Made by a program: the position numbers and the translations under genes. A stretch of DNA of 64,000 bases from Oidiodendron maius Zn (Eukaryota > Ascomycota > Leotiomycetes > Myxotrichaceae). This document shows, one piece after another, positions 35,465 through 57,442 of the stretch. The DNA lies in contig KN832891.1 of NCBI GenBank assembly GCA_000827325.1, positions 186,001-250,000 of the forward strand. The letters run 5' to 3'. Below the pieces are notes generated by a model. The model ran no database searches. It had not been told where the DNA came from and saw only the letters and a list, made by a program, of their open reading frames with translations. Each line of letters opens with the position of its first letter. Positions within the stretch are counted from its first letter, which is position 1.

Positions 35465-35969
35465 CTTGCTTGGGCGCTGAGAATATTTCAGCTGAGAGCC
35501 GCAGACTAGCACCCAGGTCACAGGGACCGCCGATCGTCCAGTTATTACCCATAATAGTACTAGTGCATTCGTCTTTCACGTGATGTAACCGCACTGAGCT
35601 ATAAATACTACATTATGTAAGCACCTCCTTCGCTTGGTGCTTATTAAGATGCTTGGCGTAATATGTACCCTGATATTTTGACTCAACTAACTAACTACAG
35701 AGCGCATGAATAGCCTCCTTGTATATTCGAATATTCAGTGGTTACGCCGATATTCGACGCCGAATATCGGTATGTCCTGCCCTTGAGTTCTGGTGCTGAA
35801 TTCATATTATCACCACCGAATCTGGCCGTATTCAGATGCCAGATGCCAGATGCAACCCTTGCCACCTTAGTCAGCATCCATCAACATTTCTGGTGATTCG
35901 TAATGCGCACTTAGAATCGCGACGCGAGCGATAGCGAGCGATTTACCCTGCCAATAACACTTGATATTC
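35465..35969. promoter_or_regulatory. Shared HET/ankyrin divergent promoter with palindromes
   Basis: Contains a perfect 10-bp stem (CCGATATTCG at 35747-35756, CGAATATCGG at 35761-35770, 4-base loop), a 12-bp palindrome ATATTCGAATAT (35723-35734), and a 7-bp unit CAGATGC in three tandem copies (35833-35853). A TATAAAT lies near 35600. Whether the palindromes bind a regulator is unknown. Confidence 0.55.
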
Positions 35970-37439
35970 ATGGCTGCAGATCTGAGTACTTATATCCTTA
36001 CAGAAGATGACCTCAGCTACTGGGAGAGTGAGGATCCGCCAGAGATTCGCGCGACCCGGAATCCAGACCCTAGGGTTCTCATCGCTCTTCTCGATAATGC
36101 CCCCGCAACATCAAGACGGACGTATTCTGCAAACGCTTTCATCCCGGGACATATAACACAGCGTATCCAAACACCTTTATTAGCAGCTATCAAAGCGCAG
36201 TTGCCGGATAACGTGCGTACTCTTCTCAGTCGAGGCGCAGATCCCAATGGACTGTCATTAGCTGCCATATCTGCATATGCCGGCGATTTCTTGCGATTTA
36301 GAGACCAGTCTGGTCTGATATCTGCACCAAGGGAAGAAGTACTCAAGCACATATCCACACCACAAGCATGTCCAATTACGGTTTCGGAGATAGAGGCGCG
36401 AAACAACACCATCTGTCATTTCTGGAGTGGCTCAGACTGCGTTCCTTTGGATCACTACAAAGGCGGAGATGGAATAACTGCTCTTGAAGAGGCTTGCAAA
36501 CACCCTTCAACGGAGATATTGGAGATGATTCTATCTTCATTGCCTGACATCTCCTTCTGGACAAGTATGCAGGCGGATATCTCCCACCCAGCTACGCCTT
36601 CGTCGCTATCTGTGTCAAATCCACTGCTTTGCGCCATCAAATATGGCCAGACTCATCATCTACGACGGCTTCTGGATTTAGGATTCAATCCAAACTCAAT
36701 GCCCCTAGCCTGCTGCGAGCAGTGCTATTCCCCTGTCATGGCCACGCTGATGTGTTGCGATCCTCCGAACTGGAATGCATTTTCTCTGCTCCTCGCCCAT
36801 CCTGCCACAGACAGGAACCTCCTGACGCCAGTAACCAAAGTTCACGCCCTCCACATTGCCGTCGCAATACTCTCCTCACCAATCCTCAAGCGCGTGCTCG
36901 ACTCCGGCTTTAGCCTTTCCGCTGTAGCCCCCACTGCCCTGGGCCATACTCTTCTCCACCTTGCCTGCCTCCCGCTCGACATCACCCACGTGAATATTTT
37001 CCAAGAAAGTATCTACAACTCAGCGCATGAGTTCCGACAACTCTCCCCCCTCCGTATGCAAAACTACATCCTCTTCGACGCGGACGAAGCGCGGCCTCAG
37101 CCGACGGATTTCTTTGCCGCGCAGGCCGAGTTGGTTCATTACCTCCTATCGCAAAGCCCCGATCCGGACGCCTTACTCGCCGCCCAGGACTGCCACGGGA
37201 ATACGGCATTTCATTACCTGGCCATGCATCGGACGGTTAATCATGACCTTCTCGAGTCCCTGATAGCTGTCTCGGAGAAGGCGGAAGACGTCTACTACGA
37301 CGCCCAGAATCATTGGGGATGGGTGGCGGAACGGCTGGTGCGCCATGGTGAGGTGGCCGAGGTGGATGTCAGCAAGAAGTTTTGGACCACATCCCACACA
37401 GCCAGAGCGGTGGAGAGTGGAGCGGTTGTGCCATATTGA
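35970..37439 (+). CDS. Ankyrin-repeat protein
   Basis: Single-exon gene of 489 residues starting M-A-A-D-L-S-T. At least four ankyrin-like units are visible: T-P-L-L-A-A-I-K-A with V-R-T-L-L-S-R-G-A-D-P-N; T-A-L-E-E-A-C-K-H-P-S-T-E-I-L; N-P-L-L-C-A-I-K-Y-G-Q with L-R-R-L-L-D-L-G-F-N-P-N; H-A-L-H-I-A-V-A and H-T-L-L-H-L-A-C-L; and near the C terminus G-N-T-A-F-H-Y-L-A-M-H. No enzyme domain or membrane segment is seen. A TTG nine bases upstream is in frame but an ATG is the normal start. Ankyrin genes next to HET genes are common in fungal accessory regions and may act as partners, but that is inference. Confidence 0.85.
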   Translation: MAADLSTYILTEDDLSYWESEDPPEIRATRNPDPRVLIALLDNAPATSRRTYSANAFIPGHITQRIQTPLLAAIKAQLPDNVRTLLSRGADPNGLSLAAISAYAGDFLRFRDQSGLISAPREEVLKHISTPQACPITVSEIEARNNTICHFWSGSDCVPLDHYKGGDGITALEEACKHPSTEILEMILSSLPDISFWTSMQADISHPATPSSLSVSNPLLCAIKYGQTHHLRRLLDLGFNPNSMPLACCEQCYSPVMATLMCCDPPNWNAFSLLLAHPATDRNLLTPVTKVHALHIAVAILSSPILKRVLDSGFSLSAVAPTALGHTLLHLACLPLDITHVNIFQESIYNSAHEFRQLSPLRMQNYILFDADEARPQPTDFFAAQAELVHYLLSQSPDPDALLAAQDCHGNTAFHYLAMHRTVNHDLLESLIAVSEKAEDVYYDAQNHWGWVAERLVRHGEVAEVDVSKKFWTTSHTARAVESGAVVPY

Positions 37440-37593
37440 TGAGGGACTGGGTCAAAGGGGAGAGGGGAAGGGTGAAAGAGGATATCGCAAAGAGAGCGGC
37501 TTTGTATTGATATGGGTGTGACCATTGATTACATCGCTAGAGATACCGAGCAAAACACTATTATGAACCGGAACTGATACCCCTCCCTCTCCG

Positions 37594-38532
37594 TCATATC
37601 CCTACACAGTACCACTCATCTGCCCACAGCGCGGAGCACGTGCTTCCAGCATCAGGATTCCACGTGTAGAATTGGGTCAAGGTGATATCATATTCTGTCG
37701 CGATTCCGGAGCACGAGTCACCACTCATAGCCTCATAGAAAGTCTGGCAGCCCCTTACCATATTCGGCTGGTGCGGCGTCGGAGTGACGATAGCCGTGGA
37801 TGTGGCTGTCGTGGATGTGGTTGTTGTGGTCGTGGTCATGGTCGTGGTTGTAGCACTGCCAGTTGGACCCGCCACGCAGTACCATTCGTTAGCCCAAAGT
37901 GCCGAACACGAGCTCCCCACGTCGGGATTCCACAGGTAGAACTCATCCAGCGTGATGTCGTAGTTTGTAGCCATTCCGCTGCACGAGTCACCGCTGACTG
38001 CCTCATAAAAGGCTGTGCATCCGCTGACCATGTTGGGCTGATGCGGCGTTGGCGTGACGATGGCGGATGACGTGGTGGAAGTTGATGAGGTCGTAGTTGT
38101 TGATGTGACGGAAGAGCTGATGGACAATGTTGCTGGACATGAGGAATTGTACCCATTCACACAGTATCTGTTGTTGTTCGCTGGTCAGAATCTGGGAGAG
38201 CTGGGGGGAGTTCGGGAGGGAACTCACGCATCACCTTGGTCTAAGTTACCGCAGGTGGAATTCAGATTAGGGTTCCACGCCTGCAGTTGGGCAAATGTGA
38301 TGTCGAATTCGATCTCAATCACGGAGCAAGAGTCTCCGGACTGAATCGTGTACCACCCATAGCAGGGTGAAATTGTTCCAGGTGTGGTTGGCGCTGGTGC
38401 TGAGACGGCAGTCAGACTGGCGCAGGCTATGCTTGTGGAGTTCCATTCGAGAGTAGGATATATGCAATAATAGAATCCAGGAGAGAGGTTAGTGCAGTTT
38501 GCATTTATGGATGGATTCATCGCTTCACAGAC
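37594..38532 (-). CDS. LysM-domain protein, 5' end missing or unresolved
   Basis: LysM domains bind chitin or peptidoglycan-like glycans; secreted fungal forms can mask chitin or bind bacteria. Exons 38532 (acceptor)-38228 and 38167-37594 are joined by a 60-nt intron that restores D-Q-G-D-A-Y-C-V-N-G-Y-N. Visible: the second half of a first LysM (V-C-E-A-M-N-P-S-I-N-A-N-C), then three complete LysM units (Y-T-I-Q-S-G-D-S-C; F-Y-E-A-V-S-G-D-S-C-S-G-M-A; F-Y-E-A-M-S-G-D-S-C-S-G-I-A) each followed by a W-N-P motif and separated by Thr-rich linkers. The last two units are recent near-duplicates with the same P-T-P-H-Q-P-N-M-V lead-in. No signal peptide or first half of LysM-1 can be found upstream, where AT-rich DNA and an aminopeptidase fragment appear. 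The ATG at 38520 lies inside the LysM motif, so the gene is probably 5'-truncated. Confidence 0.75.
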
Positions 38533-40028: not shown

Positions 40029-41771
40029 TTAAGCAACTTGACCCTTGGTTTGTTTGATACCAATGACCTTAATGTCTCGCAACATCAAGACAGCCAGAAT
40101 ACCTATAGCCCAAACGGCAGTTCCCGCAATCAACAGGCCTCTCTGCGCATCTCCATACGCATGCTGAATTGCCAGACGCTCAGGCGAGCCGACTGGAAAC
40201 GCCAGCTGCGTCGGGAGGGACTCGTAAATCAGAAGCAGGTTCTCTTGGTCCACCGCAGGAAGGTATTCGGCCAGCTTCTTTGGAAGGATGCCCTGCCAGA
40301 TGGCAGCGGAGATGGTCAGACCAATGGCGGACCCGATGTTCCCAAATAGCCCCAGCACAGCCAGACTGACGGCAAAATACTGCTGCTCGGCAGCGGCTGC
40401 CATGATAGCAATCTCGTCGCAGATGACCAGGACTCCCTCAGCAAACGATAGAAAGATCATACACATGACGATATACCCGATGTTCTGGTCAGGCTGGCGG
40501 AAGTAGATCAGCAGGCCCATGCCCAGGACTGTCAGGGGCACGCCGAAATAGAGCGCAATTGGTTTATAGCGGCCCGTGTAGCTGATAACACTGCCGGTAA
40601 TGAGGGAGAAGATCACGCCGCCAACGGTATACGTCTGCATGACATAGCTGGCATTGGTAATGGTGAGGTTATTAACTACCTGGAGGAAGGAGGTAAAATA
40701 GCTAGCCCAGCAGGCATAGCTGATGAACAGTGTGAAGGAGAGGAGACAGGCGCCGAGGACCGTACGGTCCTTTAGGAGGCGCCAGGGAATAAATGAGACT
40801 CGGGCAAAGAATCTCTCCCATATGGCAAAAGCGATGATTAGGACGATGCCAAAGACCAGGAAGCAGATAATGAGGGAAGAACCCCATCCCTTCGCCTGAA
40901 TAGTGTAGAGGTTGAAAGGGAGGAGGAAGAACGCAACTCCTGCAGATACCAGAATGAGACCAACGGCGTCGAACTCGTGACAGTAGTAAGTGACAGACTG
41001 CCAGGGCGTGTGCCCACCGTTGTCGCGCTTCGGGAGGAGGCCGCGCTTCTTTGCATTGAAGAACTGCAGCAAAAAGAGGCCGAACAGCGGAACAGTTACG
41101 CCCGGGACGAGAATCGAAAACATTCCAAAGGCCCAGCGCCAGCCAGCTCCATTCAGGAAGGCCGTAGAGATTGGTCCAACAAGCCAGCAGGTGATTAAGT
41201 TAGGGGAACTAACAAATGCCTGCATCAGGCCGCGGTGGCGTAGCGACGATGTATCGGCGACGAAGACGCTCAGACTGTATCCGATGCCATTGATTCCAAC
41301 TGTGTAAAAGACCTGAGAGGCGGCATACGCTTCGACATTATTACAGCTTGCCGACATGATGAGGCCCAGAACGCAGAGCACGACGCAGAGAAGGAATCCT
41401 TGGGGCCGACCAAAGATATCCAGGACCTTCGCAATGCTAAGATTTGTGACGCCGCCGATGACCGAGCTCAAGATGCTCGTGGTAGGCGTGAGCGAGTGTA
41501 AAGCGAAGTCGGAGGTGACGAAGGGGAGCAGGGAGCCGCTGACGCCAGAAACCAGGCCCTGGACGAAGTATGTGAGCCAGATCAGGATATAGGCAATGAT
41601 GAGCCATGTCTTCGACCATGTAATGGTTACGGCCTCGATGTCCTGGATACCTGGTTGAACAGTGGTATCTACGTGCTCATCGTCCTCCGAGTTGTCGTGA
41701 ACTGCTTCCTGGGCAGCGTTGATCGCTTTCGTATTCTCCTCTGGTCGAAAGTCTGCCTCCCGAGATGCCAT
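40029..41771 (-). CDS. MFS transporter of the siderophore-iron transporter (SIT) type
   Basis: Single-exon, 580 residues. After a hydrophilic acidic N terminus comes the SIT signature: T-W-S-K-T-W-L-I-I-A-Y-I-L-I-W-L, H-S-L-T-P-T-T-S-I-L-S-S-V-I-G-G, A-K-V-L-D-I-F-G-R-P-Q-G-F, N-N-V-E-A-Y-A-A-S-Q-V-F-Y, A-D-T-S-S-L-R-H-R and G-W-R-W-A-F-G. Hydrophobicity suggests about 14 membrane segments, normal for SIT proteins, which import ferric siderophores by proton symport. Its position next to an isocyanide-type assembly gene suggests it could instead handle a metal-isocyanide complex or export the product; that is inference. An AATGTGCTCA motif lies 339 bases upstream (42110-42119). Same strand as the A-T-transferase gene, 1.2 kb downstream of its stop. 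Confidence 0.92.
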   Translation of the reverse strand: MASREADFRPEENTKAINAAQEAVHDNSEDDEHVDTTVQPGIQDIEAVTITWSKTWLIIAYILIWLTYFVQGLVSGVSGSLLPFVTSDFALHSLTPTTSILSSVIGGVTNLSIAKVLDIFGRPQGFLLCVVLCVLGLIMSASCNNVEAYAASQVFYTVGINGIGYSLSVFVADTSSLRHRGLMQAFVSSPNLITCWLVGPISTAFLNGAGWRWAFGMFSILVPGVTVPLFGLFLLQFFNAKKRGLLPKRDNGGHTPWQSVTYYCHEFDAVGLILVSAGVAFFLLPFNLYTIQAKGWGSSLIICFLVFGIVLIIAFAIWERFFARVSFIPWRLLKDRTVLGACLLSFTLFISYACWASYFTSFLQVVNNLTITNASYVMQTYTVGGVIFSLITGSVISYTGRYKPIALYFGVPLTVLGMGLLIYFRQPDQNIGYIVMCMIFLSFAEGVLVICDEIAIMAAAAEQQYFAVSLAVLGLFGNIGSAIGLTISAAIWQGILPKKLAEYLPAVDQENLLLIYESLPTQLAFPVGSPERLAIQHAYGDAQRGLLIAGTAVWAIGILAVLMLRDIKVIGIKQTKGQVA

Positions 41772-42989
41772 GTTGGCAAGTGATCGTCAGCGTCTCTAGT
41801 TGAATATGCCGGAAGAGAAGCTCATGAAGTGATTTCGACGGAGCGAAGATGGCAAAACAACTATGCCCATAACCAAAGATCACGCTGGCGGTTGGAAAGG
41901 AGTTTGGAGAAGAGGTGAAATGGACTCCGGCAAGGCAAACCAACAGCCCAGGCGGGTATCCAACTCAAACCGCGTCCGAGGCATCATGGCCAGGGCCATG
42001 TTTACCACTGCACTAGGCGTGCGGTGCGACATCGTAGTACGTGGTAAGAGCAGAACCTTCGCATGGGAGTGACGGGGGGTTGCCATGCTAGTGAAATGAT
42101 ACTTGCGCTAATGTGCTCAACTGCGACAGAGTAAATGACCCTTTTCCGGCCGCGCCTTTGCTTTGCACGTGCGGCACTAACAACGAACCTAAATAATTTT
42201 AAGGTAAGATTGCCGTATTACATACAGTACCACTACCTCCCATGGGGTTCTGGTGGCAGGTACGCGGTCCCATACGAGCCCCTCAGCCGCCAAGAGAATA
42301 GATATCGACGGACGGGATGGTGCAGTAGTTAGGCCTGTCACGGAACCGCTAGTGTAGGATGGTGCAGAAGAACCTCCTCAAACCTGCTCACGCCTCGATG
42401 TCTAGCAATCGGGCTCGTCCTGTCCTGCCTAGACCTTGCGGGAAGGTAGGCCTAGGCAGTTTAGGCCACTCTAAGCCTCCACTCTTCTTCTCGCGCTTCA
42501 CACGGTTTCTACATAGGTACTGGCTTCTACAAGCCCTTTCGGGCGGCTAAGGGGAATGCCTGCTAAGCAGAATACTGGCATGAGATGCTGTAAAATGGGA
42601 AAATAAGGTCAAGGATCTGCACTTTACTTAGAAGAGTAAGATCTCTCCATAGCAGACTGGCTGCTCCATCGAGGACCCGCACTTGTCGTAGATATACAAG
42701 CAAAGCGAAGAAACCCTCACAGATCCCCTAGGAGTTAACTGAGGAGGGTATTGGTAATGTACCACATGGTAATCTCGTCATCCCATGTTGCTTTTATCGC
42801 CATCCTAGCCGCTGTCCTGGCCATCAGAGAGTCAAAGGGTGAAGGCACCGGCACCTCCACCTTGCTATGCACTCGTGGATATTACCCCTTGTGATAATTC
42901 GCGTAAGAGTCTCCTTCATCATCCGATAAGCAGATGGGAAATGGCTGCTGTACATCAATCCCTCTACTCTACCCCAATCTAGTCTACGT
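41772..42989. other. MFS promoter and 3' flank of the A-T-transferase gene
   Basis: 1.2 kb without a supported gene. It contains the AATGTGCTCA motif (42110-42119). Short open stretches at 42135-42550 show no family. Confidence 0.5.
42110..42119 (+). promoter_or_regulatory. Candidate copper-response motif upstream of the MFS gene
   Basis: AATGTGCTCA contains TGTGCTCA, the octamer described for Mac1-type copper-starvation activators in Aspergillus. The same 10-mer occurs in the A-T-transferase/ICS promoter (47640-47649). One further TGTGCTCA-type octamer, as TGAGCACA, lies inside the HET coding region. About two octamers are expected by chance in 64 kb on both strands, so the placement, not the count, is the argument. 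Confidence 0.45.
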
Positions 42990-45900
42990 TTACACATTAG
43001 GTTCCTGACAATCCACAAGCTTCGCATACTTGGTGAACTCCTCGTCGGCGTTGAATACCTCCATCTCCTCAGGCAATGTTCCGATCATCAGTTCCACGCC
43101 GCCATCGCTTCGCATTGGAGAGATGACTAGAAATCGAAACCTTCGGGAACCCCGTTCGATCTGTGGCCGCATGGCTTCGGGCGAACCTTTGCTGCCAAAG
43201 AATGCGTCGCCAAATGATATATCGCTCGGTTGGAACAACATGAGATTGGAAATCATGGCATTCATATGGTCAAGACCCATATTGGCGGTGGCAGGCTTGC
43301 TATAGTCAGTCATGGATTTCAGAAGCGTAAAGGCGTCGTGGACCAGCGAGGGAGTGACCCTGGCGGTTGCCTCTCGGAGGAGATAGGCAATGCGTCCAAC
43401 ACTAGTGGTGGGGGAGCACAACGTCTCGATGGGCATAGTGGCTCGGTTCATAATAAGCATGCTGCCCATATACGACGATGGCAACGAAGACGAGAAGTAA
43501 GGCCGGCCGTCAATGGGCAGCTCCAAAATGGAGATTTCGTCAGTTCCAAATGATCTCCCATGGATCTCTTTGGCTACTTGATAGCGGGCCCTAATAGCAG
43601 AGCGCCAGAAGAAAGCCTGCACGATATCACTGACGGATGTGATGATCCCCTTAGCAGCTGGGTCAGCGAGCACCTCTTGCTTCAGCTTCTGTACGTTCTC
43701 TGGTGGAATTAAGAATAGAGTTGTATTTAGAGATCGCTCGGCGGGAGCAGCCGGCCAAACGGGTTGACGAGGGTAAACAGGCGCTGGAGGGAGAGCTTTC
43801 CTTTTGGGGGTAGGAGACTCGTCCAAAGTGCCTTGTACCGGGGTTCCAAGGTCGGCGAGATCCGACTTCACTCCTGAATTGCCGCTCTTTGCATGGCCGG
43901 CGTGGACGGCGTGGTCTGGAGGGAAGAACGGTAGAAATCCCCAGACACCTGGATCTACCTCATGGGCTGGCTTGGCGTACCCTTCCTGCTCATAGATGAT
44001 TTCCGGCAGGCTGTGGTTAAAACTCTCAGGGCTAAACCACTGATACGTCGCTGATTGATCTCCTTGCAGGTATCTGCAGCTTTCCGCCCAGAGCCTCAGG
44101 GCCACCATGACTCCTATGCCATCAAGGCATGTATGGATGAAGTTGGTGGCCAGGATGCACCCGCCCTCGACGAAGTTGGCTTGCGCAACCAGGACATCGG
44201 CGGGCATCGTAGGGAATGGGTTACAATCGAGGACAGTTTCATCCCTAAACAGGGAGGGGACGAATTTGGACTCTCGCATCTTCTCGAATGAAGGAAGTAC
44301 GTGAGATAGGTCTTTGTAAACAAGTTGCCTCGGATTCGAATGGGCGGGCAGTGAGGGAGGGGGGATCGTGATGCGATATTCCCCTTTTTTATAGCCGAAT
44401 TCCTGTTCCGAGGCAAGCATCATCTTGCCATCGAGAGCTGGGACAAGTTGCAGGGTGCGACGGAGACCCTCTTGCAGTCTCGCAAAAGCTTCTTGGAAAC
44501 TTATTCCCGGACGTAGAGCAAAGAAGAAATTTAGGCCCATGTAGTGATTAGGGTTCACCGCATCGAATGGGTTCATCTTGAATCCAAGTCGCCGCTTATG
44601 CTCGACTATCATTCTTTCCATATTGGCCGATTCATCGTTGACAGGGTTATCTCCGTAGATAGATCCAGGGGTAGATCCGCCGGCTATTTCATTGGTTACT
44701 CCATTGCTTCCATTAGCTGCCGTATTGTCCGCCCTCCTGGCATCCGCCACTATTTTTGCAACGGCGGCCGAGAACTTGGTGAGGGTGGGGTTCGCATAGA
44801 GATATCGAGGAGCCAGCTGCTCCTGTAAACCCGTGGCCGCTCGAATGATCTTGACTGCCCGAAGCACGAGAAGCGAGTCCAGGCCCAGGCTGAACACATC
44901 GGCATCGGGCGAAGCCTTCTCTATCTCGGGCAATACGGAGCCAAGGATGCGGCGAAGTGACTCGGTAATCGTCTCGATCGAGCTGGTGTCGACCGTAAAT
45001 GTACCCCGCGCCTCTTGACTTGTCTCGTCGTCTCGTGTGCCATAGAAACGGTCAATGTAGTCGGTATAAAGCTGCAGCGTCGCATTTCGCTTGATGGTTC
45101 GCTTGTCCGTCCGGATAAATGGCTTGTCTGGCTCTGCAAAAGTGATATAGTCCCTCTGCAGGCGGCTCTTCTGGAGAGACAGCTCATTGGCTCGCCCGAC
45201 CGTTGACCATATGCTATCAAAGAGCTCATTACTTCTTGCGGTCGCATCCTTTAGCTCAATAAGCAAGCCCGCTTGAGGTTTCCCAGTTCCGATCATGAGG
45301 CATCCTTCAACTGCAGGGTGCGTCGTGATCAGTGCCTCTACGTCCAAAGGCGATATTTTGTACCCATTGGAAAGGACAATCACATCGTCACTTCTTCCCT
45401 TGAAAGCCCAAAGATTTGGTTTCGTGGGATGCCTGATGTACAAGTCTTTGAGGTTGACGGATTCCTTGTCCGGAAAAGTGTAGAATAGGCCCTGAAACAA
45501 GGCCCAGTTCTCGTTGCGGTGCACCCAGTGTTCATACACACCAGGTTCCACCTCTTTAAACTCGAAGCCCGAGAAAGGATGAAATGCGAACCAGTGCCAG
45601 TCTTGTCTTTCAACCCAGAGATTACCAATAAACAGACCCTCCGTTGTGCCTGTTAAGTTTAAGACCCTGACAACATCATTAACCTTCGAAGCAATAATTG
45701 GACTAACCGGTCCTAGGAGCAAATTGTTGGTCAATCCCGACAAGTTTTCTAACGGAGACATGACACTTACCGCCAGAGGCACAAATGAATTTTGACGATT
45801 TGAACTTTGCAAGGACATCGGGCGTCTCTCCGAGCTCATCAACAAGTGACGGAACCATACTCCAGATGTCAATTTTCCCGTGGTCAGCAAGAGACTCCAC

Positions 45901-46963
45901 GAGGCCCATGTTCGGTAGGACATCCGGGGGTCCCAGGATGCAGTGTAGGTTGTACAAAGCAGGCATGAGGATGTTCATTATTATACCCGCACCCTGTAAG
46001 TTCCGACGTCAGTAGATCGGCTCCACAATGATTCTAATGCATTTAGACAAAATACGCACGTGGCTCATAGGGAATGACGAGTAGATTCTATCGCCTTCGT
46101 TCCAATCCTTTGACCATGGGGCCAACCCACCGTCACCTTCAGTAGGTGGAAGTAACCGTATAGCATCCATTGTGCCGATCAGGCCGTGAGTCCATGAAAT
46201 GGGTTTCGGTACCCCCGTGGTACCCGAGGTATGTAGAACGCAGAACGGCTCGTTGATAGCTTGGTCAAACGTTTTGTTATATGGAAACGGCTCTGTACCA
46301 TCACAATCTAGAAGCTCATCTACCCCTGGAAGTTCCAGCACTTTCATCTCTCTTTGCTGGAGGAAGCCTTTAGCCAGCGGAATCATCGGCAGCTCATTAG
46401 GCTTCACCCATATACTGCAGTTTGCTGCATTGAGGACTGCTAATGCTCCCTCGACGTTATTTTTAGGAGAAAGAAACAAGGCCTATGGGGAAGAAATCAG
46501 TACCCGTTATGCACTGTGACAATGAACTTAGACTTACAGCGCAATCAGCTTTCGCTGCAGCATATGTCAATAGGATGTGTCGAATATCATCTTTGTATAG
46601 TCAGCAGGCAGTCTAGAGCACACGCCTAGAGCTTTTCCCATTTAACTTACGAGGTCCGATATAGCCTATCATTTGCATGGGCGGTGATCTCTCATTCTGG
46701 GAGCCTCCATAGTCTCCATTCTGGACTTCATTATGATTGCTCTTATTGATTCGATGTGTATTTCGGGCCTTGTCGCGGAGCCACCACGCGGTTTTGTCTA
46801 CGGCCTTGGCAAATGTGCCAGCTGAAATGTGTCGAAATTCATACGAGGTGTCAGAAAATTGCACAATTGAAAATATAATACGATTCGGTTCGCTAGCAGC
46901 TAGATCATCCAGAATCTGGGGGATAAGTCTCCTCCCATATTCGGGCGGTGTTTTAGACAACAT
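42990..46963 (-). CDS. NRPS-like enzyme: adenylation - thiolation - acyltransferase
   Basis: Activates a carboxylic acid as adenylate, loads it on a carrier and passes it to an acceptor through a BAHD/trichothecene-acetyltransferase-like domain. Exons 46963-46651, 46590-46538, 46482-46060, 45993-45771 and 45712-42990 give 1,244 residues. A domain: H-T-S-G-T-T-G-V-P-K (about 207), N-L-T-G-T-T-E-G, G-R-S-D-D-V-I-V-L-S-N-G-Y-K, K-R-T-I-K-R-N-A. Carrier: F-S-L-G-L-D-S-L-L, phosphopantetheine Ser at about 615. Transferase: H-T-C-L-D-G (about 865), with F-G-D-A-F-F-G at the usual D-F-G-W-G site. There is no condensation or reductase domain. Divergent from the isocyanide synthase gene across a 1.6-kb shared promoter. 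In A. fumigatus, as I recall, an ICS domain is fused in front of exactly this A-T-transferase order in CrmA. An amino-acid-derived isocyanide acid is the inferred substrate. Confidence 0.88.
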
Positions 46964-48562
46964 TTGGGCTTACAGGTAGTTGACTACCTTTACAACAGCG
47001 ATACATGAAATTGAGGATTGGAGATGTAAACACTCAAAGATGTCTTGAAAGCGTAGCTGCAACTACAATCAAAAACCACCTCTAAGCTATCTAGTACTGG
47101 TAGAGTACCCTCGTGGCCCCCTTCCATGGGTCCCTGGAGGACGGAAATGACCCAAGCCTCGTAGTATACGAAGCCCTGTATCCACCTAGTCCGTGCAGCC
47201 GCTTACCTCTGTGCTATGGCTGGCGGGAGTGACGGTGTGCGGGTGGTAGCCGTCTGGGAGTTCGTCTGACATATAGGTAAGCAACCAACAAGTATTCTGC
47301 GAGTTTTGCCGATCTCAACGGCCTTCAATTAGCAATTCTCTGGAGACAAAAACCAGCAGCATGTTAAAATCCATGGGTTCAGGCTGGATAACTTTGGATT
47401 TCACATGAGCCTGCGAGCTGAAAGGTAAAGGAACTGGAGGCTGACGATAACTTGCTCATCTAGGCCGCTACAATGGGAAGGTCACCACTTGGTATTCGAA
47501 CGTGCCGTAGAGGGTACCATCAAAGCATTTTACTTGTTAGTCTCTCAGGTTACAGATCCCTGACTCTTTCTGACGCCGAAAAAAACGGAATAAAAGTTCG
47601 CTCTGCCAAGAAAGCCTACGTAGTAGTTTGACTAAAATAAATGTGCTCATAATCCCGCTCACTAGCCCGCTTATGCACCTGTTTGTTGCAGGTGTGAAAG
47701 ACCTTTGACATTTGAACCCTGCACGAATCTCTGTTACGATCCCGTACCCCAATCAGATCGCGGTTAGGGTTTCAAGGTCGTATGGCCTCGAAGTTTGTTC
47801 TAAAACGGGGGCTTGGGTTTCCCTGGTCTCATGGTTGTCTAGAATTGCGTGCTTTATCTGGTCATGACACCCATCCCTTAGCCTTCCACGACTCGGCGTT
47901 CAGCAGAGAGAATAATAACCCTCTTGAAATTTCATGAGCTCAGAGTGCTCGGATCCAGGACTGCATCAAGGTTTATGCATGTACTGCGCTCAATTTGCTT
48001 CTAGCCTCCATTTAGATCTTTAAATGATCATTTGCCCTTAAATGACAGGATCCTTCTATCTAAATTTAACCACCCCGTATCATTCGACTCCATCCATACT
48101 GGGGTGCCTCCTACTATCTTGTTCTTTTCCAGGAGGCAAGGGACTCGGTCAAGGTCCGATCATCAGCATGCGACTAGGTCCTACTAAATAGTATCTAGAC
48201 TGGATCTAGTAATAATACATTGCAGATTTTCGTGTAGGAGTGACATGATGTAGAATGGCACAGTCTGACTACCTGCCTGTCAGGAAAGGCCTAGTAGGCG
48301 CGCCAAAAACAATAATTTCTCTCTCTAGCCTCATAGTAATAGACATGCGCAGCAAGACTTTAACAGATTCTGACCACAGTGCAGACTCCTTTTTTTGCCA
48401 CTCCCGCACTCCGACTGCGATAATCTAGGCTATTTGCGTGAGTATTATAGAACCCGGCCCGCTTGTGCCCCATTCGTACGCACAGGGTCTGATTTGGATG
48501 AAGAAAACTCGCTCTGTCATCTACATTAAGATACTACTGTGGAGTTTGCAAAGACTGCCATA
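46964..48562. promoter_or_regulatory. Divergent promoter of the A-T-transferase and isocyanide synthase genes
   Basis: 1.6 kb with no supported gene. It contains AATGTGCTCA at 47640-47649, a near match TGCGCTCA (about 47985), and TTGCTCA (about 47453). A shared regulator for both enzymes is plausible. Spacer length is generous, leaving room for a small undetected transcript. Confidence 0.5.
47640..47649 (+). promoter_or_regulatory. Candidate copper-response motif in the ICS/A-T promoter
   Basis: AATGTGCTCA, identical over ten bases to the motif upstream of the MFS gene. It is 677 bases from the A-T-transferase ATG and 914 from the ICS ATG. Confidence 0.45.
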
Positions 48563-50155
48563 ATGGAGACTCCTGTCATCGATGTCTCTATAGAAGAGAC
48601 TGCTAACAAGATTCTTGAAATTATCTTGGATTATGCCCTCAACAAGTTCGACGACACCAAAGATCAACTCAATGCAGGCAGGCCCAAGTTCTTGTCTGTC
48701 ATCGGAGAGTTTATCCTTGCCGGAACACGCGTGGAAATGTGCCTGCCAGCATTCCCATTTAAGTCGGCAAACAAAGTCTACAAAGTATTTGGTATTCTAC
48801 CCGATAAAGCGGAGGAAATTGCCCTCGATCGGCTGAACACTATGTGTTTGCGCATAGGAGAGATTTATCAGCCTGGGGCTAAGTGTACGATTATTTCGGA
48901 TGGACTTGTTTACAATGGTATGTCTATCTCCACCAGAATCGTGTCCATTATTCTAAATACCTGCTAATTTCAACTCTAGATTTGTTATGCATATCTGATC
49001 GTGATACTTGGGCATACGGGCAGGCGTTACGTGAAATGGCTGTCGAGAAGCGGTTTAGCCATATTGGATTCTCCAGACTCAAAGACTTCGTCAATCTTCC
49101 ATTGCCAGAGAAGCTGGACGAGATCACTTATGTTGCCAATGCCACTAACTTTCGCCGCTGTATGATGAACAATTTCGGCAAGGAAGACCTCGACATCGAA
49201 AATGAAATTGCTAATAGTCCTGATACAAAACTGACTTACCTCGGATATCGAAGATTTCTCGAGTCAGATTTGCGCTACATCTTCCCACTCGGCACAGGTC
49301 GAAGTAGCCATAGCTATAAGAAAGACGTGAGATACCTGGCCCAACAGATGCTTATTCGAGGACATGTATGTAAAATATATTGTGCGTCTAAGTCAATTGG
49401 GAGTACTAAAATTTGACAACCAGGCTTTTGCTAGGGCGGTTAAATATGCATTTCCAAATCATTTACGCCTGTCTATCCACAAGTCTACCAATGGCCACAA
49501 GATATCCATGAGCCTACTCAATACTAAAACCGGCTTTACAACTCCTTGGCACTGCAGCGTTGCTTTAATGGCGGATGGTGAATGGCTGAGTGCCCCCATG
49601 GGCGACTTTCAAAAAGATCCCCGATTTGAAATCGTGTATGAGCATGGTCGATGTAGCTACTTTAAAGAAGTGGTGGATCAAACTGTTGATGGCGAAATAC
49701 CAGTGGAACGAGCCACAGGGGTGTCAGAAAAGCAGAAGAAAACTCGAGGCAGACATGAAGTACCCCCACTAGTCAGTTCATCTATGTTGAGCCCAGATTC
49801 TAGCGACTTTACAATCAAGTCATGGTTCCCGACAGCCACGAGCTATTCAACCTATCTCGCTCTATACATTGAACCGTTTGGCAGCTACATTGTAGCTGAC
49901 AGCCTAAGATCAATCGCTGGGTACTTCCTCTTCTATAGGGGACACGATATGCGTATGACTTTGGAAGGCAGCGGTGCATACTATACCAGTTGGTGGGGGG
50001 ATTTTAGCACATTCTGGGCTTATGTGATATTTAATATTGGAGCAGCTGCAGCACTTTACTGGCTTACTAGAGTGTTGGTAGGGAAGAGAGGGGGGAAGGT
50101 GAAGATGGTTAAAACGGCTTCAAAGGGTGAAATAGGTATAAGACCGGCAAACTAG
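48563..50155 (+). CDS. Isocyanide synthase, Dit1/PvcA family, with C-terminal hydrophobic extension
   Basis: Dit1/PvcA/IsnA enzymes turn the amino group of an amino acid into an isocyanide (isonitrile). Three exons (48563-48917, 48980-49365, 49424-50155) encode 490 residues. Family landmarks: I-L-D-Y-A-L-N-K-F near the N terminus, F-I-L-A-G-T-R-V-E-M-C-L-P-A-F-P-F-K-S-A-N-K, D-G-L-V-Y-N-D-L-L (restored only by splicing intron 1), D-T-W-A-Y-G-Q-A-L, I-G-F-S-R-L, L-R-L-S-I-H-K-S and T-P-W-H-C-S-V-A-L. The first ATG in frame is at 48563; upstream codons offer only GTG. After about residue 340 the protein continues with about 150 residues not typical of the family, ending in a predicted membrane helix (Y-V-I-F-N-I-G-A-A-A-A-L-Y-W, about 445-468) and a basic tail. 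It lacks the fused dioxygenase or NRPS-like parts known in other fungal ICS proteins. Substrate amino acid is unknown. Confidence 0.9.
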
Positions 50156-50276
50156 ATTGTGAGGCTTGTCAGTGATTTTGGTAGACGAAGAGAATATTAT
50201 ATTCTTCGAAGAGACTGAGCATCTATTGCTCACACAGTACCCTCTTCCTACATAATAGAGCCTCTTCATGTCTTGT

Positions 50277-51314
50277 TCAGGGCACCATAATCCTTTTAAG
50301 CCAATTACGCTTTGCCACGATGGCTGTTTGAACAAGAGGCATGTTCGGGTTCTCCAACATATCAAATCCATGCCAGGCACCTGGCCAGACATGCAATTCG
50401 CACGTAGACCCACAGCGCCACATATTCCCAGCGAAAAGCACGGCAGGATCACGAAATACCTCGCACTCGCCAACGTCAATGTACGATGGTGGAAGATTCG
50501 ACAGATCTGTTGCTCGTGACGGTGATTGATAGGGTGTAACTCTGTCTGTTCCCCGATAGTCTCCTATGATACAGCTCCACGCCATGCGATTCGAGATTCC
50601 ACTCCATGGGCTGCCGTATTCGAATTGCTTGTCTGATAATGTCTCGCACCGATCGTCCAGCATGGGCGTAAGCAGCATCTGAGCCTTGATAGGAATGGTA
50701 GGAGAGTTCCTATCTCGGGCCATAAGGCAAGTCGCTGCGGCCAGAGCACCACCACCGGACAAGCCGAACACGACTATATTTGAAGGATCGATGCCCAAAG
50801 TGCTGGCATTCTGGGACATCCATACAAGACCAGCATAGCAGTCCTCAGCCGGCCCAGGAGCACGAGTTTCTGGCGCAAGGCGGTACTCAACAGTCACGAC
50901 GATGCATTCGATATCAGCAAGGAGGTCGATCAACGGGGTGACGGCGGTAAAGCGATCCCCAGAAATCATACCACCGCCATGGATATGATACAATGCCGGC
51001 AGGGCGGCTTTTGATGGCTCCCTTGGCGTGAAGACAGAGAGGGTAATTGTGTTGTTATCAGGTCCAGAGACGGAGTGCTCTGTGTGCTTCAGGAATTGTT
51101 TCTCCTTGGTGATAGTATCAGCATTGTAGACCCATGGGCTATCCTCTCCACCCGCCGCCACACCGCGCATAAAGTCGACATCCAGCTCTTCAGGAAGGGA
51201 CCCAGAATCAACTAGGGGCGCGAGGGCGGGGTCAATGATTGGACGAGGAATCTTGATCCTCGGATCAAGCTTGGCGGCTTGGGAATAGGGGAACGGGTAC
51301 GGAGACTTCGACAT
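50277..51314 (-). CDS. HSL-type alpha/beta-hydrolase
   Basis: Single exon, 345 residues, no signal peptide, so probably cytoplasmic. Hormone-sensitive-lipase family: H-I-H-G-G-G-M-I-S-G-D (oxyanion hole), V-E-Y-R-L-A-P-E, nucleophile Ser in G-L-S-G-G-G, Asp in G-E-C-E-V-F-R-D, His in P-G-A-W-H-G-F-D. The nucleophile motif departs from the usual G-D-S-A-G-G by Leu and Gly; the catalytic triad itself is complete. Convergent with the isocyanide synthase (121 bases apart) and divergent from the acyltransferase at 52170. It could hydrolyse or transfer an ester or amide in the cluster product; that role is inferred only from position. Confidence 0.9.
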   Translation of the reverse strand: MSKSPYPFPYSQAAKLDPRIKIPRPIIDPALAPLVDSGSLPEELDVDFMRGVAAGGEDSPWVYNADTITKEKQFLKHTEHSVSGPDNNTITLSVFTPREPSKAALPALYHIHGGGMISGDRFTAVTPLIDLLADIECIVVTVEYRLAPETRAPGPAEDCYAGLVWMSQNASTLGIDPSNIVVFGLSGGGALAAATCLMARDRNSPTIPIKAQMLLTPMLDDRCETLSDKQFEYGSPWSGISNRMAWSCIIGDYRGTDRVTPYQSPSRATDLSNLPPSYIDVGECEVFRDPAVLFAGNMWRCGSTCELHVWPGAWHGFDMLENPNMPLVQTAIVAKRNWLKRIMVP

Positions 51315-52169
51315 TTTGCGGACGATGTACGCGCTACTGGTGCGTCTCCGGGGGTAAAACGAAATAGTTGCAAACTTCGCTTTTCAGTTTCGATTAATGG
51401 ATAGAGCTTGCATTGGCAAAAACTTCGCAGCGAGTGTCATGACAGGCAACTGAGCAGGTTTGAGCTCTTTACACTTGTTAGTTTGTCAATTCGCTCAGCA
51501 CGGGCCGTTCTCGCCCACAGTTTACTACAGCGCGGTATTACTGCGTTCTGTACCCACACCGATGCGGCGATGCCACTGCATTCGCAGCCTGCACCAAGGA
51601 TTCGAAGCCCCTAAGCCGAATGGCGTAGGATTCTTTTTCTTTTTGTCTGATGGCACGCATGAATATGGATCCATACCTGTTGTTCCGCTTGGCTGCAGGA
51701 AGCCTAGCAGGGCCAAAGAGGCCGAGCTTGACAGGGTTCTGTTGAATGTGCGGACCGCACTGCGTAGGAAGAAGTAGGTAATAATCTTACAACTTGTAGG
51801 GTCTGTGCCATACCGCATATGTATTGGCTTGATAGAGGGTATGGTGTAAGGTTTTGGCCTGAATTTGTGCAGTAGCCCTTCTCTCATCCGTGTTGGCACC
51901 TTTCCAGCTGATCAGCATTGATTCTAATGTTAGCGAACACTCTGTGGGATAACTCCTAGTCGGGATATACACACATATACACTGAACAACTTAGGCAGAA
52001 AATATAATCAATGTATGCTCGGTTTTGTTTCAATCTGTTGCCTCCTCTCAGCTTCGTCTAGTGACATTCTAACCAAAACCTTGACTTCCCACCAGAACAC
52101 ACTTGTCTTGTCTCGTGAGGCGAGTTTTATACAATCCCCACAAGCATTCAGCCACTCGTCGTCAGCAGT
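51315..52169. other. Divergent promoter of the hydrolase and acyltransferase genes
   Basis: 855 bases. No gene is supported; open stretches at 51408-51899 on both strands overlap and lack signatures. No perfect TGTGCTCA was found here. Confidence 0.45.
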
Positions 52170-53680
52170 ATGCCTTTGCTTAAAAAACTACGGCCACTAG
52201 GTGTTTAGTCTTTGATTTACTATCAATCTGATTCCCTAACGTGTTACAAGGCAAACTTGAATCAATCTCAGCCGCATGTCACCACCTAGGCTTCTTCAAC
52301 AATGCGGCGGTGTCTGCCAACTACAAACTATCTAAATCCTCCGCGGCAGAATTAGTCTCAGATATCCAGCCTACCATATACCGTGCGGTAGCAGAAGTCA
52401 TTCGCAGACATCCTATATTGTCTGCTATTCCAGTTGCTGAAGATACTCCGGATCCTTATTTCGCCCACCTGCCTTCAGTTAATCTTCAGCGAAGCATTCT
52501 GTTTTTTAAACGTTCCAAACTTTACCCGCCTCTATCTAGTAGAGAAAACAGCTGGGAAGACGAAGAACTTGATTGGATTCTTGAGAATCAACACAACGCC
52601 GACTTCAAGCTCGATTATGGTAACCTGCCATTTTGGCGTCTAATAATCCTGCAAAATCCTGGAAGAGAGAAGATATCACTGGCGGGGCAAAATGGATTAT
52701 CCAAAAATGAAGACCAACTGAGCGAATCGAATGAATTCACCGCTTGCTTCGTTTTCCATCATGCCCTTTGCGATGGGATGTCTGGGTTGATTTTCCACAA
52801 CACGCTTCAAGATGCTCTTAACGCTGGTTTATCAGTGCCTCAAGCTTCGACCAAATGGGTTACCCCACCAAACGATAGCCTACTTCTTCCATCTATCGAG
52901 GAGTTGCATTCTCTCCCAATCAACCCTGAGCCGCCTACCACAACAGTAACAAAAGCATGGACAGGAAATACCATCCACGCCCCTTGTGAGACCCGTTTCA
53001 AGTCGCTTTCAATTGCTCCAAACTGCTCAAATGCCTTCATACAGGCGTGCAGGAAGAATGACGTAACAATCACATCAGCTCTTCCTGCTCTCATAGCCAC
53101 GGTTCTATACAGCGTCCTCCCAGAAGGTACAGAGTCACTGAATTGCAACATCCCGGTCAGCTTACGGCGATGGTTACCCCAAGATGTTGTTGACGGTGCA
53201 ATGGGAAATTGGTTCGATGCATTCCAGGTTCGATTCCTCTTCTCCGACCAAAACAGTGAAGATTCGACAGATATATGGCCTCAAGCTCAAAAAGCCTCCA
53301 AGGCAATAGCGAATTATCTGAACGCCTCACCTTCGGGCCCGTATACCAATATTGGTATTTTCAAACAAATTCCAGATATCTCAATAGTCTTCAATTCTCT
53401 CCTCGGGAAAGAACGTGATACAGCAATAGAAGTATCAAATCTTGGAGTTTTCACAAATCCGACAAATCGGGAGAATGTTTGGCAAGTAGAGAGAGTTGTG
53501 TTGAGTCGAAGTGCCGTTGTCTCTGGGAGCGCAATTACCATTACTAGTGTCGGTGGTGGAGATGGGAGTATATCCTTGGGGTTTACCTGGCAGAAAGGTG
53601 TGATAGAGGAAGATTTTGTTGATTTAGTTATCACGGGTGTTAGAAAGTATTTCGAGGCACTAACAAAAGCTAACAAATAG
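52170..53680 (+). CDS. Alcohol-acetyltransferase-like acyltransferase (AATase family)
   Basis: Transfers an acyl group from CoA to an alcohol or amine. The start lies in a tiny first exon: 52170-52200 encodes M-P-L-L-K-K-L-R-P-L, and after a 50-nt intron exon 2 (52251-53680) continues K-L-E-S-I-S-A-A-C-H-H-L-G-F-F-N-N, the usual AATase N-terminal motif (R-P-x-G-x-x-E ... R-H-x-x-G). Total 486 residues. The catalytic H-H-A-L-C-D-G sits at about 180, and the C-terminal part has the expected N-W-F-D-A region. No signal peptide or membrane segment. It is the second CoA-type acyltransferase activity in the cluster besides the fused domain of the A-T-transferase enzyme, so the product may be acylated twice or this gene may lie outside the pathway. 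Confidence 0.85.
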
Positions 53681-54780: not shown

Positions 54781-57442
54781 ATGGCGACAAGACGCTGCCG
54801 CGACCGCAACTTGCGCGATTACTTGATCTCCTGGCTTGTCACCGCAGGTCCATTCTGGCTAGGTCTCATTACCATCCTCATCTGGGCCTACATAGTGAGT
54901 ATAGAGAGGCCATGTGATATTACTTTAATCCAATCATGACATATAAGATGCTTCCTAGAACCCAAGCAGGGAGTTTGCTGAAATCGTGTAGATCATCAAC
55001 GAGACGAGACTCATGTCACTGACTTTGCCTATTCTGGCATTCACGGCAGCTGCCCAAACCGTTGATTACACTAAATATGTGAATGTCTTGTAAGCTCCCC
55101 AGCCATTTTTCGTACCTCAACTGACTAGGAAAGTACCGGCACACGACACAGGGGCAATAACTTCCCCGGTGTCGCACGACCATTCGGAATGGTCAAGCTC
55201 GGTCCCGATCTTCTGGTTAATGGCACCGAGTCTTACTCGGGCTATCTACCCAATGGCAATTTCTCTGGTTTCAGTATGATGCATGAGCAAGGAACTGGTG
55301 GTGCTCCAAAATACGGGACAGTTGCTCAGCTGCCGTTGGTTGGAAATATCAGCGATCCTTTGTCAAGTATCACTGTCGGCCGAGCAGTTGCAGATCAAGC
55401 CTCAGTTGGCTACTACAAAGCTGAGACGAGTGATCAGGTTATTGTAGAACTTGCTGCTACGTCCCGTGCGGGGATGTACCAGTACACCTTCCCTGCTGCA
55501 AGTGATGGAAACAACATCTTGGTGGATATAAGTCACGTGCTGCCCTCATTTAAAGGACAAGGGCTGAGCCAAGGTTATGAAGGGGGCACATTCAATCTCT
55601 TCCCAGATGGGCATTACGAGGCTTCTGGGATCTATAACAATGGATGGAACAGGTCCCCAGACTGGACAATCTACTCGTGTATGTCTGGCACTTGTATCCT
55701 TTATCCGGATACTGACTGATATTCAGGCGGGCATTTCAATGTCACATCGAAAGCGGCTCATGCGTATACCGGGACTGCAGCTGGGGGCAGCGTGTTGCAA
55801 TCTAGTGGATTGGCCACCTCGAATTCCACAAACACCTATGTCGGTGGATTGTTCACCTTTGATAGCAGTACAGTTTCATCTCGAGTTGGAATCTCCTGGA
55901 TCTCTAACGAGAAAGCTTGCCAAAACCTCGCTGACGAGATTCCCGAGGGTACAGCATTTTCCACTGTGGTTGAGAATACCAAAGATGCATGGAACTCGCA
56001 GATTCTCTCCTCGATTACAACAACTACCACGAACACAACGAATCTGGAGTTGCTCTACACATCTCTCTATTTCATGAATCTTTTGCCAACTAATCAGACA
56101 GGTGAGAATCCAGGCTGGAACTCAACGGAGCCATACTACTCTGATATTTTTACACTTTGGGATCTATTCCGATGCTCGACAGCTTTGTTGCATGTTTTGC
56201 AACCGACCGTCTATGAGGAATATGTCCGTTCTATGATTGATATTTGGCGATTTGAAGGATATTTGCCGGACGCACGGTCTTCAAACTATAATGGAAGAAC
56301 GCAAGGAGGATCCAATGGTGACAATGTCTTAGCCGATGCGTATGTCAAAGGTGTCCGTGGTTTGATCAACTGGGATGATGGGTATGCAGCTGTGGTTAAG
56401 GATGCTGAAGTCACACCTGTGAACAGTGATCCTGATCCCCAGGCACCGGACTCGTCAACCAGAGAAGGCCGAGGCGCTCTTCCAGACTGGCTCACCTACA
56501 GTTTCATCACACCCACATTCAGCCGAGCAGCTTCCCGTGCTGTGGATTATGCATACAATGACTTTGGGCTATACCAGGTTGCGAGTGGACTTGGGAACAC
56601 AGCTGATGCAGAAAAATATCTCAATCGTTCGAGAAATTGGAGAAACCATTGGAATCCGGATCTCAAGTCCATTGGCTATTCAGGCTTTATTGCGCCACGA
56701 GATATTTTCAGCTTTATCGACACAGATCCTTTGACTGACAGTGGATACTGGGATGATCCATATTATGAGGCAAGCTCGTGGGAATACTCTTGGGGCGATA
56801 TTCACGATATGGCAAAGTTGGTGGAATGGATGGGTGGGGTCGACACGTTCCTTTCGCGACTGGAGACAATGTTTACAGTGGGTGCAAACTCCAATGATCC
56901 TACTGGTATCATCTTCGATTCTAGAAATGAGCCGTAGGCCACTCTCTTCGTCCGGGGAAAGCAGATACTGACCAAATAGAACTTTTAATGTACCATATCT
57001 CTACAACTTTATTAACCGCCAAGATCGGTCAGTCTATCAATCCCGCAAAGTCGCCAAAGGAGACTACAGTTCAGGTGTCGCTGGACTCCCCGGCAATAGT
57101 GATGCAGGAGCGATGCAAACTTGGCTTCTGTGGAACATGATTGGTCTCTATCCCGTAACTGGACAAACGACTTTCTTGATCCATTCTCCTTGGTACGAGT
57201 CGATGACGATCAATCTTGGTGACGGCAAGACTCTAGTGATTACAAGCACAGGGGGCGATGGAAATGGAGACTCCGATTTCTACGTTCAGAGTTTGAAAGT
57301 GAACGGACAGATATGGACGAAGAATTGGGTCGTATACAGCGACGTCTTCGCGAATGGCGGAACCATGGAATTCGTTCTCGGCCCAGAACCTGTGCAATGG
57401 GCAACGGGCGACCTCCCACCAAGCCCGGCAACTGAACCTTGA
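54781..57442 (+). CDS. GH92 alpha-1,2-mannosidase
   Basis: Calcium-dependent inverting exo-alpha-mannosidase, acting on mannoprotein or N-glycan mannose. Exons 54781-54894, 54992-55089, 55152-55678, 55727-56933 and 56980-57442 close in frame at 802 residues. Landmarks: A-R-P-F-G-M-V-K-L-G-P-D, G-F-S-M-M-H-E-Q-G-T-G-G, Y-S-D-I-F-T-L-W-D, G-S-N-G-D-N-V-L-A-D-A, W-E-Y-S-W-G-D-I-H-D, R-N-E-P-T-F-N-V-P-Y-L-Y-N-F, and G-N-S-D-A-G-A-M-Q-T-W-L-L-W-N with the D-A-G-x-M signature. Start choice matters: the ATG at 55013 gives a plain signal peptide, while the upstream exon from 54781 (strong GTGAGT donor, phase-0 join) adds a basic N terminus and a membrane helix, a signal-anchor layout. I prefer the longer model with moderate confidence. 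The gene lies between two biosynthetic clusters with no evident link to either. Confidence 0.88.

What the first reader, a model, noticed from the sequence alone, without database searches (positions are those of the whole stretch)
40029..53680. Isocyanide gene cluster in which the CrmA-type functions are split over two divergent genes
Seen: a Dit1/PvcA isocyanide synthase (48563-50155, +) stands head-to-head with an adenylation-thiolation-acyltransferase enzyme (42990-46963, -), flanked by a SIT-type MFS transporter, an HSL hydrolase and an AATase-like acyltransferase. Known, from memory: A. fumigatus CrmA carries ICS, A, T and transferase domains in one polypeptide, makes valine-derived isocyanides and is induced by copper starvation. 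Inference: this locus makes a related isocyanide acid ester or amide with separate, co-regulated enzymes, either the ancestral unfused state or a secondary split. The extra hydrolase and second acyltransferase suggest a product different from the known ones.
Basis: partly seen in the sequence, partly recalled or inferred. Interest (0 to 1): 0.88.

Follow-up and report, generated by a model that had tools for sequence, protein, structure and literature searches.

The report
Split crm-type fungal isocyanide gene cluster
A fungal genome carries a five-gene set that probably makes a copper-related isocyanide ester with two separate enzymes in place of the single fused enzyme known from Aspergillus fumigatus; the same gene order has been described in a Fusarium, so this is mainly a new occurrence of a known arrangement.

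Summary
Five intact genes lie in order: MFS transporter (-), adenylation-thiolation-acyltransferase enzyme (A-T-Tf, -), isocyanide synthase (ICS, +), alpha/beta-hydrolase (-), AATase (+). ICS and A-T-Tf are separate, head-to-head genes. Of three ICS loci found in the genome none is joined to A-T-Tf domains. So 'CrmA functions split over two genes' is supported. 'Extra genes, hence a new product' is not: AATase (crmB) and alpha/beta-hydrolase occur in published crm clusters. A split was already proposed for Fusarium (GCF 8, PMC10153163), and F. oxysporum has the same five-gene order, bound by Mac1 (PMC11563359). The host here is probably a Eurotiomycete (recalled TEF1 features), so the new points are the wider distribution of the layout and a 160-residue ICS tail with a marginal hydrophobic stretch. 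Best mechanism: ICS makes a free isocyano acid (valine-derived by analogy); A-T-Tf activates it in trans and esterifies a polyol; hydrolase and AATase tailor; MacA induction has weak motif support. No fungal sequences were available for gene trees. New member of a known kind, moderate interest.

The parts
40029..41771 (-). MFS transporter, 580 aa, one open frame; crmC-like by position (SIT subfamily label is recalled)
   Evidence: MFS_1 9.9e-19, TRI12 1.6e-7; start; nearest paralogue pieces in this genome, on C4, are 41-51% identical
41772..42989 (.). upstream region of the MFS gene with Mac1-like sites at 42111-42119 (ATGTGCTCA) and 42382-42390 (ACCTGCTCA)
42990..46963 (-). A-T-acyltransferase enzyme, 1244 aa, exons 46963-46651, 46590-46538, 46482-46060, 45993-45771, 45712-42990
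   Evidence: gene model; Pfam; transferase part matches trichothecene 3-O-acetyltransferase structures (2zba 6.9e-15), HTCLD aligned with HGAMD
46964..48562 (.). shared divergent promoter region (1599 bp) with Mac1-like sites at 47450-47458 (ACTTGCTCA) and 47641-47649 (ATGTGCTCA)
48563..50155 (+). isocyanide synthase without further known domain, 490 aa, exons 48563-48917, 48980-49365, 49424-50155
   Evidence: gene model; DIT1_PvcA 5.2e-99; PvcA structure 3e59 1.3e-27
49673..50152 (+). C-terminal extension of the ICS (residues about 331-490) with a hydrophobic stretch at residues 448-466 (about 50024-50080)
   Evidence: no Pfam match at E up to 1; best 19-residue hydropathy 1.67; frame scores like coding sequence while the other five frames do not
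50277..51314 (-). alpha/beta-hydrolase, 345 aa
   Evidence: Abhydrolase_3 7.5e-48; start
51315..52169 (.). shared hydrolase/AATase promoter region; no TGTGCTCA, one looser Mac1-like match at 51451-51459 (-)
52170..53680 (+). AATase-family acyltransferase (crmB-like), 486 aa, exons 52170-52200 and 52251-53680
   Evidence: AATase 2.1e-12

Best explanation
This is a crm-type isocyanide cluster in its split form, in a fungus that is probably not Fusarium. The ICS turns an amino acid (valine by analogy with CrmA) into a free 2-isocyano acid. The separate A-T-Tf enzyme adenylates that acid, holds it on its carrier domain, and its TRI101-like transferase domain passes it to an alcohol, most likely mannitol. 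The hydrolase and the AATase add or trim further acyl groups (acetyl, hydroxyisovaleryl), as suggested in print for the heterocicolins and brassicicolin A, and the MFS protein moves product or metal complex. The genes would be switched on by MacA/Mac1 under copper starvation. Shown here: the genes, domains, some catalytic motifs, the split state, and no fused copy found. Inferred: substrate, polyol acceptor, in-trans transfer, tailoring, transport, copper control.
For: Domain content. ICS residues 44-298 align with PvcA and 8-325 with isonitrile synthase structures. Transferase domain matches TRI101 structures with the H and D of the HxxxD motif aligned (motif recalled). The A domain reads FPMSH where amino-acid-activating domains have FDxS (protein; motif recalled), which fits an acid without a free amino group. 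Three ICS loci were found in the genome: one alone (C14), one with a dioxygenase-like part (C1), and this one. Of 12 Transferase-family places found only this one lies in an A-T frame. F. oxysporum has the same gene order; Mac1 bound the cluster by ChIP-seq, crmB and crmC were significantly induced without copper, the other three genes were reported up but too variable for the main list. Loose Mac1-like sites in the two promoter regions serving the MFS, A-T-Tf and ICS genes: 4 against 0.75 expected from the window rate, Fisher p 0.0056.
Against: No sequence of CrmA or of the F. oxysporum genes could be compared. The F. oxysporum text calls crmA ICS-NRPS-like and Won et al. list Fusarium among genera with CrmA homologs, so the split there is likely, not proven. 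The motif test is post hoc: the whole window holds 17 sites against 24.1 expected in shuffles; for the bare core TGCTCA Fisher p is 0.041; with other loci of this genome as background it is 4 against 1.03, P 0.021 (three stretches counted twice). The strict TGTGCTCA is upstream of 0 of 5 copper-transporter loci here, though the looser motif is enriched there, 9 against 2.75. In A. fumigatus none of the other crm genes is needed for the CrmA-dependent metabolites, so tailoring by hydrolase and AATase is a guess.
Confidence: 0.67

Rival explanations
1. The split is old: separate ICS and A-T-Tf genes in this gene order are the ancestral crm state, kept here and in Fusarium, and fused CrmA arose by inversion and fusion elsewhere.
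For: Same five-gene order in two probably distant lineages (for this host, for F. oxysporum); Nickles et al. favour fusion of an ICS with a nearby NRPS gene. No ICS remnant precedes the A domain: Pfam finds only the five A-T-Tf matches in the 1244-aa protein.
Against: Horizontal transfer of the whole cluster would give the same picture; the F. oxysporum text read does not give the orientation or the domains of FOXG_09770 and calls crmA ICS-NRPS-like.
Confidence: 0.4
2. The cluster reached this genome, or Fusarium, by horizontal transfer, so the shared layout is recent.
For: Shared gene order; ICS cluster families are discontinuously distributed in several cases.
Against: No test was possible; the G+C of the cluster (0.449-0.536 in 2-kb steps) lies within that of the rest of the window, 0.404-0.538.
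Confidence: 0.3
3. Secondary fission of a fused crmA in this lineage alone.
For: CrmA homologs are reported from Eurotiomycetes.
Against: It would have had to produce the F. oxysporum order independently; the ICS carries its own 160-residue tail without Pfam match.
Confidence: 0.15
4. Two unrelated pathways lie side by side: a stand-alone ICS and an unrelated A-T-acyltransferase ester pathway.
For: Divergent neighbours with a 1.6-kb spacer can belong to different pathways.
Against: Gene types and order equal the published crm cluster of F. oxysporum.
Confidence: 0.1

Closest known systems
F. oxysporum crm cluster (FOXG_09769 to FOXG_09773; PMC11563359)
   Same: Order crmC - transferase gene - crmA - hydrolase - crmB; hydrolase and crmB divergent; Mac1 sites reported in every promoter except the shared hydrolase/crmB one
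   Different: Different host lineage (probable); here one loose match lies in the hydrolase/AATase promoter (51451-51459); domains of FOXG_09770 (annotated Transferase) and crmA not checked by sequence
GCF 8 of Nickles et al. 2023 (PMC10153163)
   Same: Single-domain ICS beside a separate NRPS gene that shares a domain with the crm fusion
   Different: GCF 8 is called Fusarium-specific and holds 89.5% of the 95 ICS clusters with both NRPS-like and terpene synthase genes; none of 8 terpene synthase matches lies on this contig
A. fumigatus crm cluster (CrmA; valine isocyanide, fumicicolins, fumivalines)
   Same: ICS, A, T and transferase domains; predicted AATase (crmB); MFS-type transporter gene (crmC)
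   Different: CrmA is one fused protein; crmD copper transporter has no counterpart here (no Ctr match on C22); a hydrolase is present here
Dothideomycete crm clusters (C. heterostrophus, A. brassicicola, L. maculans; heterocicolins, brassicicolin A, maculansins)
   Same: Hydrolase between the ICS gene and the AATase gene
   Different: There CrmA is fused and carries an additional transporter domain and no crmC or crmD homolog was identified; here the transporter is its own gene

Membership tests
crm-type isocyanide cluster | ICS domain of the DIT1_PvcA family | tested here: met
   5.2e-99 over residues 48-315
crm-type isocyanide cluster | AMP-binding, carrier and transferase domains with the ICS in one protein (CrmA proper) | tested here: not met
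   domains all present but in a separate divergent gene; so this is not a CrmA protein, though it may work like one
crm-type isocyanide cluster | AATase gene (crmB) and MFS gene (crmC) nearby | tested here: met
   families found; orthology to crmB and crmC not tested
crm-type isocyanide cluster | ICS closest to crm/GCF 8 ICSs in a tree | not testable with these tools
   no fungal sequence collection; 37% and 39% identity to the two other ICSs of this genome
crm-type isocyanide cluster | MacA/Mac1-dependent induction by copper starvation | tested here: inconclusive
   motif enrichment p 0.006 to 0.04 in chosen promoters; no expression data
crm-type isocyanide cluster | valine-derived isocyanide product | not testable with these tools
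   needs metabolite analysis
GCF 8 (Fusarium split type) | single-domain ICS next to a separate gene with crm-like NRPS domains | tested here: met
GCF 8 (Fusarium split type) | terpene synthase in the cluster (reported for many members; whether for most is not in the text read) | tested here: not met
   0 of 8 PF19086 matches lie on C22
GCF 8 (Fusarium split type) | Fusarium host | tested here: inconclusive
   no match to the MGKEDKTH TEF1 start; TEF1 here starts MGKEKTHIN with an intron after ATGGG. Fusarium and Eurotiomycete comparators are recalled, so this speaks against Fusarium without proving it

The most novel reading that the evidence does not exclude
The split, five-gene layout is the ancestral crm state across Pezizomycotina, kept in Fusarium and in this probable Eurotiomycete; the ICS is a membrane-tethered, tail-anchored enzyme that hands a reactive isocyano acid to a soluble A-T-acyltransferase in trans, and the fused CrmA arose later as a way to channel it.
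Probability: 0.2. Interest if true: 0.55.

Novelty: new member of a known kind. Interest (0 to 1): 0.36.

Why it matters
A split crm cluster outside Fusarium would make the published fusion hypothesis (separate genes first, fused CrmA later) testable with two independent lineages. It also offers the ICS and the A-T-acyltransferase as separate proteins, so the unknown acylation step of the fumicicolin/brassicicolin-type esters could be assayed directly.

Tried and rejected
Looked for ICS relatives in viral contigs (2 pattern matches, none confirmed), A-T-Tf relatives in viral contigs (none) and ICS relatives in prokaryote genomes (234 pattern matches, none confirmed). The patterns were specific to these fungal proteins, so this is not evidence that bacterial relatives are missing (PDB shows that they exist). 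A 5.8S rRNA search to name the host found nothing, with 39 of 1307 candidates scored. A fused CrmA elsewhere in the genome was sought and not found. Terpene synthase as a GCF 8 marker: no match on the contig. No structure prediction was run. PMC12113139, PMC11509074 and PMC11457142 were looked at by passages and hold nothing on a split.

Rejected: one gene misread as two (the genes are divergent); extra acyltransferase and hydrolase mean a new product (both occur in published crm clusters). The ICS tail as non-coding sequence is unlikely: its frame scores 0.03 bits per codon against -0.20 to -0.37 in the other five frames and 0.13 for the ICS core.

Corrections made on the way: the first AATase model had a one-base error at the exon junction and was replaced. 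An earlier count said no site in the hydrolase/AATase promoter; that holds for TGTGCTCA, but the looser motif has one match there.
Full report
What is there. The window is part of contig C22 of a 45.9-Mb, 58-contig genome with introns and fungal genes. Between 40.0 and 53.7 kb lie five genes: an MFS transporter (41771..40029, -), an adenylation-thiolation-acyltransferase enzyme (46963..42990, -, five exons, 1244 aa), an isocyanide synthase (48563..50155, +, three exons, 490 aa), an alpha/beta-hydrolase (51314..50277, -) and an AATase (52170..53680, +, two exons, 486 aa). Pfam matches for the spliced core enzymes: DIT1_PvcA 5.2e-99 for the ICS; AMP-binding 8.1e-21, AMP-binding_C_3 4.6e-30, PP-binding 9.5e-07, TRI-like_N 1.2e-12 and Transferase 8e-10 for the A-T-Tf enzyme. 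The others match MFS_1, Abhydrolase_3 and AATase.

The enzymes look functional. The ICS aligns with solved PvcA (3e59, 1.3e-27) and with isonitrile synthase structures 9dhm and 9dh4. The transferase domain aligns with trichothecene 3-O-acetyltransferase structures, and its HTCLD lies on HGAMD of 2zba (HxxxD as catalytic motif is recalled). The carrier domain has LGLDSL. In the A domain the segment FPMSH stands where amino-acid-activating domains have FDxS (recalled); loss of that aspartate fits an acid without a free amino group, such as an isocyano acid. This is an inference from one motif.

Split state in this genome. The DIT1_PvcA family has 7 matching pieces in 3 loci: this one; C14, an ICS alone by its gene model; and C1, an ICS followed by a dioxygenase-like part (proteins; the dioxygenase label is by reading and recall). 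The 994-residue frame of the A-T-Tf gene has 13 matches in the genome and none is a second A-T-Tf protein. Of 12 Transferase-family places, only C22:229035-229709 is in an A-T frame, and none of the others lies near an A-domain match. Counts in these tools are lower bounds.

Literature. Lim et al. 2018 (PMC5974471, passages) describes three eukaryotic ICS architectures, the ICS-NRPS fusion being CrmA. Won et al. 2022 (PMC9381783; sections 6, 11 and 13 read) reports that CrmA makes valine isocyanide, that crmB is a predicted AATase and crmC a siderochrome-iron transporter, that Dothideomycete clusters have an alpha/beta-hydrolase between crmA and crmB and a transporter domain on CrmA, and that mannitol esters are products; it lists Fusarium among genera with CrmA homologs. 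Nickles et al. 2023 (preprint PMC10153163; [quoted passage not shown] The F. oxysporum paper PMC11563359 (sections 6 and 7 and passages read) gives the cluster crmC, FOXG_09770 (transferase family), crmA, FOXG_09772 (hydrolase), crmB, with hydrolase and crmB divergent and Mac1 sites in all promoters except that shared one; crmB and crmC are significantly induced without copper, the other three genes were up but too variable for the main list. The order is the same as here. That paper calls crmA ICS-NRPS-like, and the text does not give the orientation of FOXG_09770 (annotated Transferase in PMC5112587, passage), so identity of the split is likely, not proven. Searches in which I saw no other report of a split, judged from the listings and from the papers named here: 30 of 45 listed; 15 of 325 listed; the library holds open-licence PMC papers only, and the published NAR version is not held.

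Host. A 5.8S rRNA search found nothing, with 39 of 1307 candidates scored. The pattern for the TEF1 start MGKEDKTH gave no match; the gene found starts MGKEKTHIN with an intron right after ATGGG. From memory this fits Eurotiomycetes and not Fusarium. This is a lead, not a proof, since no named fungal sequence was compared.

Copper control. The MacA motif TGTGCTCA (PMC6514546, passage) occurs 3 times in the window, 2 of them in the promoters of the MFS gene and of the A-T-Tf/ICS pair; the looser F. oxysporum motif occurs 17 times, 4 in these two regions against 0.75 expected (Fisher p 0.0056 in both cases; 0.041 for the bare core TGCTCA). Against a background of 19 other loci of this genome the expectation is 1.03 and P 0.021 (three stretches are counted twice there and one locus overlaps the window by 2 kb). 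The looser motif is also enriched in the 1500 bases before the match in 5 copper-transporter loci (9 against 2.75, P 0.002), one of them (L027) with stops in the match, but the strict motif is absent there (0 of 5). The regions were chosen after the motif was known, and the whole window is not enriched (17 against 24.1 in shuffles). I count this as weak support. Five copper-fist factor places exist in the genome, so a MacA-like regulator is possible; which one it would be was not examined.

ICS tail. Beyond the ICS domain the protein runs on for about 160 residues with no Pfam match at E up to 1 and a hydrophobic stretch at residues 448-466 (mean hydropathy 1.67, only a little above the best stretch of the A-T-Tf enzyme, 1.56). 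The frame behaves like coding sequence. A C-terminal membrane anchor is possible, not shown. Whether GCF 8 enzymes share it is unknown.

Mechanism. Most likely the ICS releases an isocyano acid, the A-T-Tf enzyme activates it in trans and transfers it to a polyol, and the hydrolase and AATase tailor the ester. Steps shown: genes, domains, motifs, split state. Steps inferred: substrate, acceptor, order, export and regulation.

Verdict. A real, intact, split crm-type cluster. The layout is already described, or nearly so, for Fusarium; its presence in a probable Eurotiomycete and the ICS tail are the new points.

Noticed in passing
window 62002-64000 and beyond (C22:248001-258000, L018): A polyketide synthase frame (ketoacyl synthase and acyl transferase domains) on the minus strand runs from beyond the window into its right end; an FSH1 hydrolase, a TRI101-like acyltransferase and an FAD-binding monooxygenase-type protein follow: probably a separate polyketide cluster.
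   Followed up: partly
L021 (C1:447001-457000): The ICS-dioxygenase locus is flanked by two DJ-1/PfpI proteins (the family of isocyanide hydratases, as in the literature); an MFS-like frame upstream was read by eye only.
   Followed up: partly
C11:729327-733367 (L034, L028): A copper-fist transcription factor match and a Ctr copper transporter match lie about 3.5 kb apart; four loose Mac1-like sites lie in the 1500 bases before the transporter match.
   Followed up: no
L027 (C4:2035832-2036284): A Ctr-family match with nine in-frame stops, either rich in introns or a pseudogene.
   Followed up: no
window 8812-10038 (-), 11629-12399 (-), 995-1597 (-): Plant cell wall enzymes in the left part of the window: GH62 arabinofuranosidase with CBM1, an esterase of the PHB-depolymerase family, and a GH5.
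   Followed up: no
window 33095-38184: HET-domain protein, ankyrin-repeat protein and LysM protein side by side just left of the cluster.
   Followed up: no
window 55720-56937 (+): A GH92 family protein lies just right of the cluster, which helps to set its right border.
   Followed up: no
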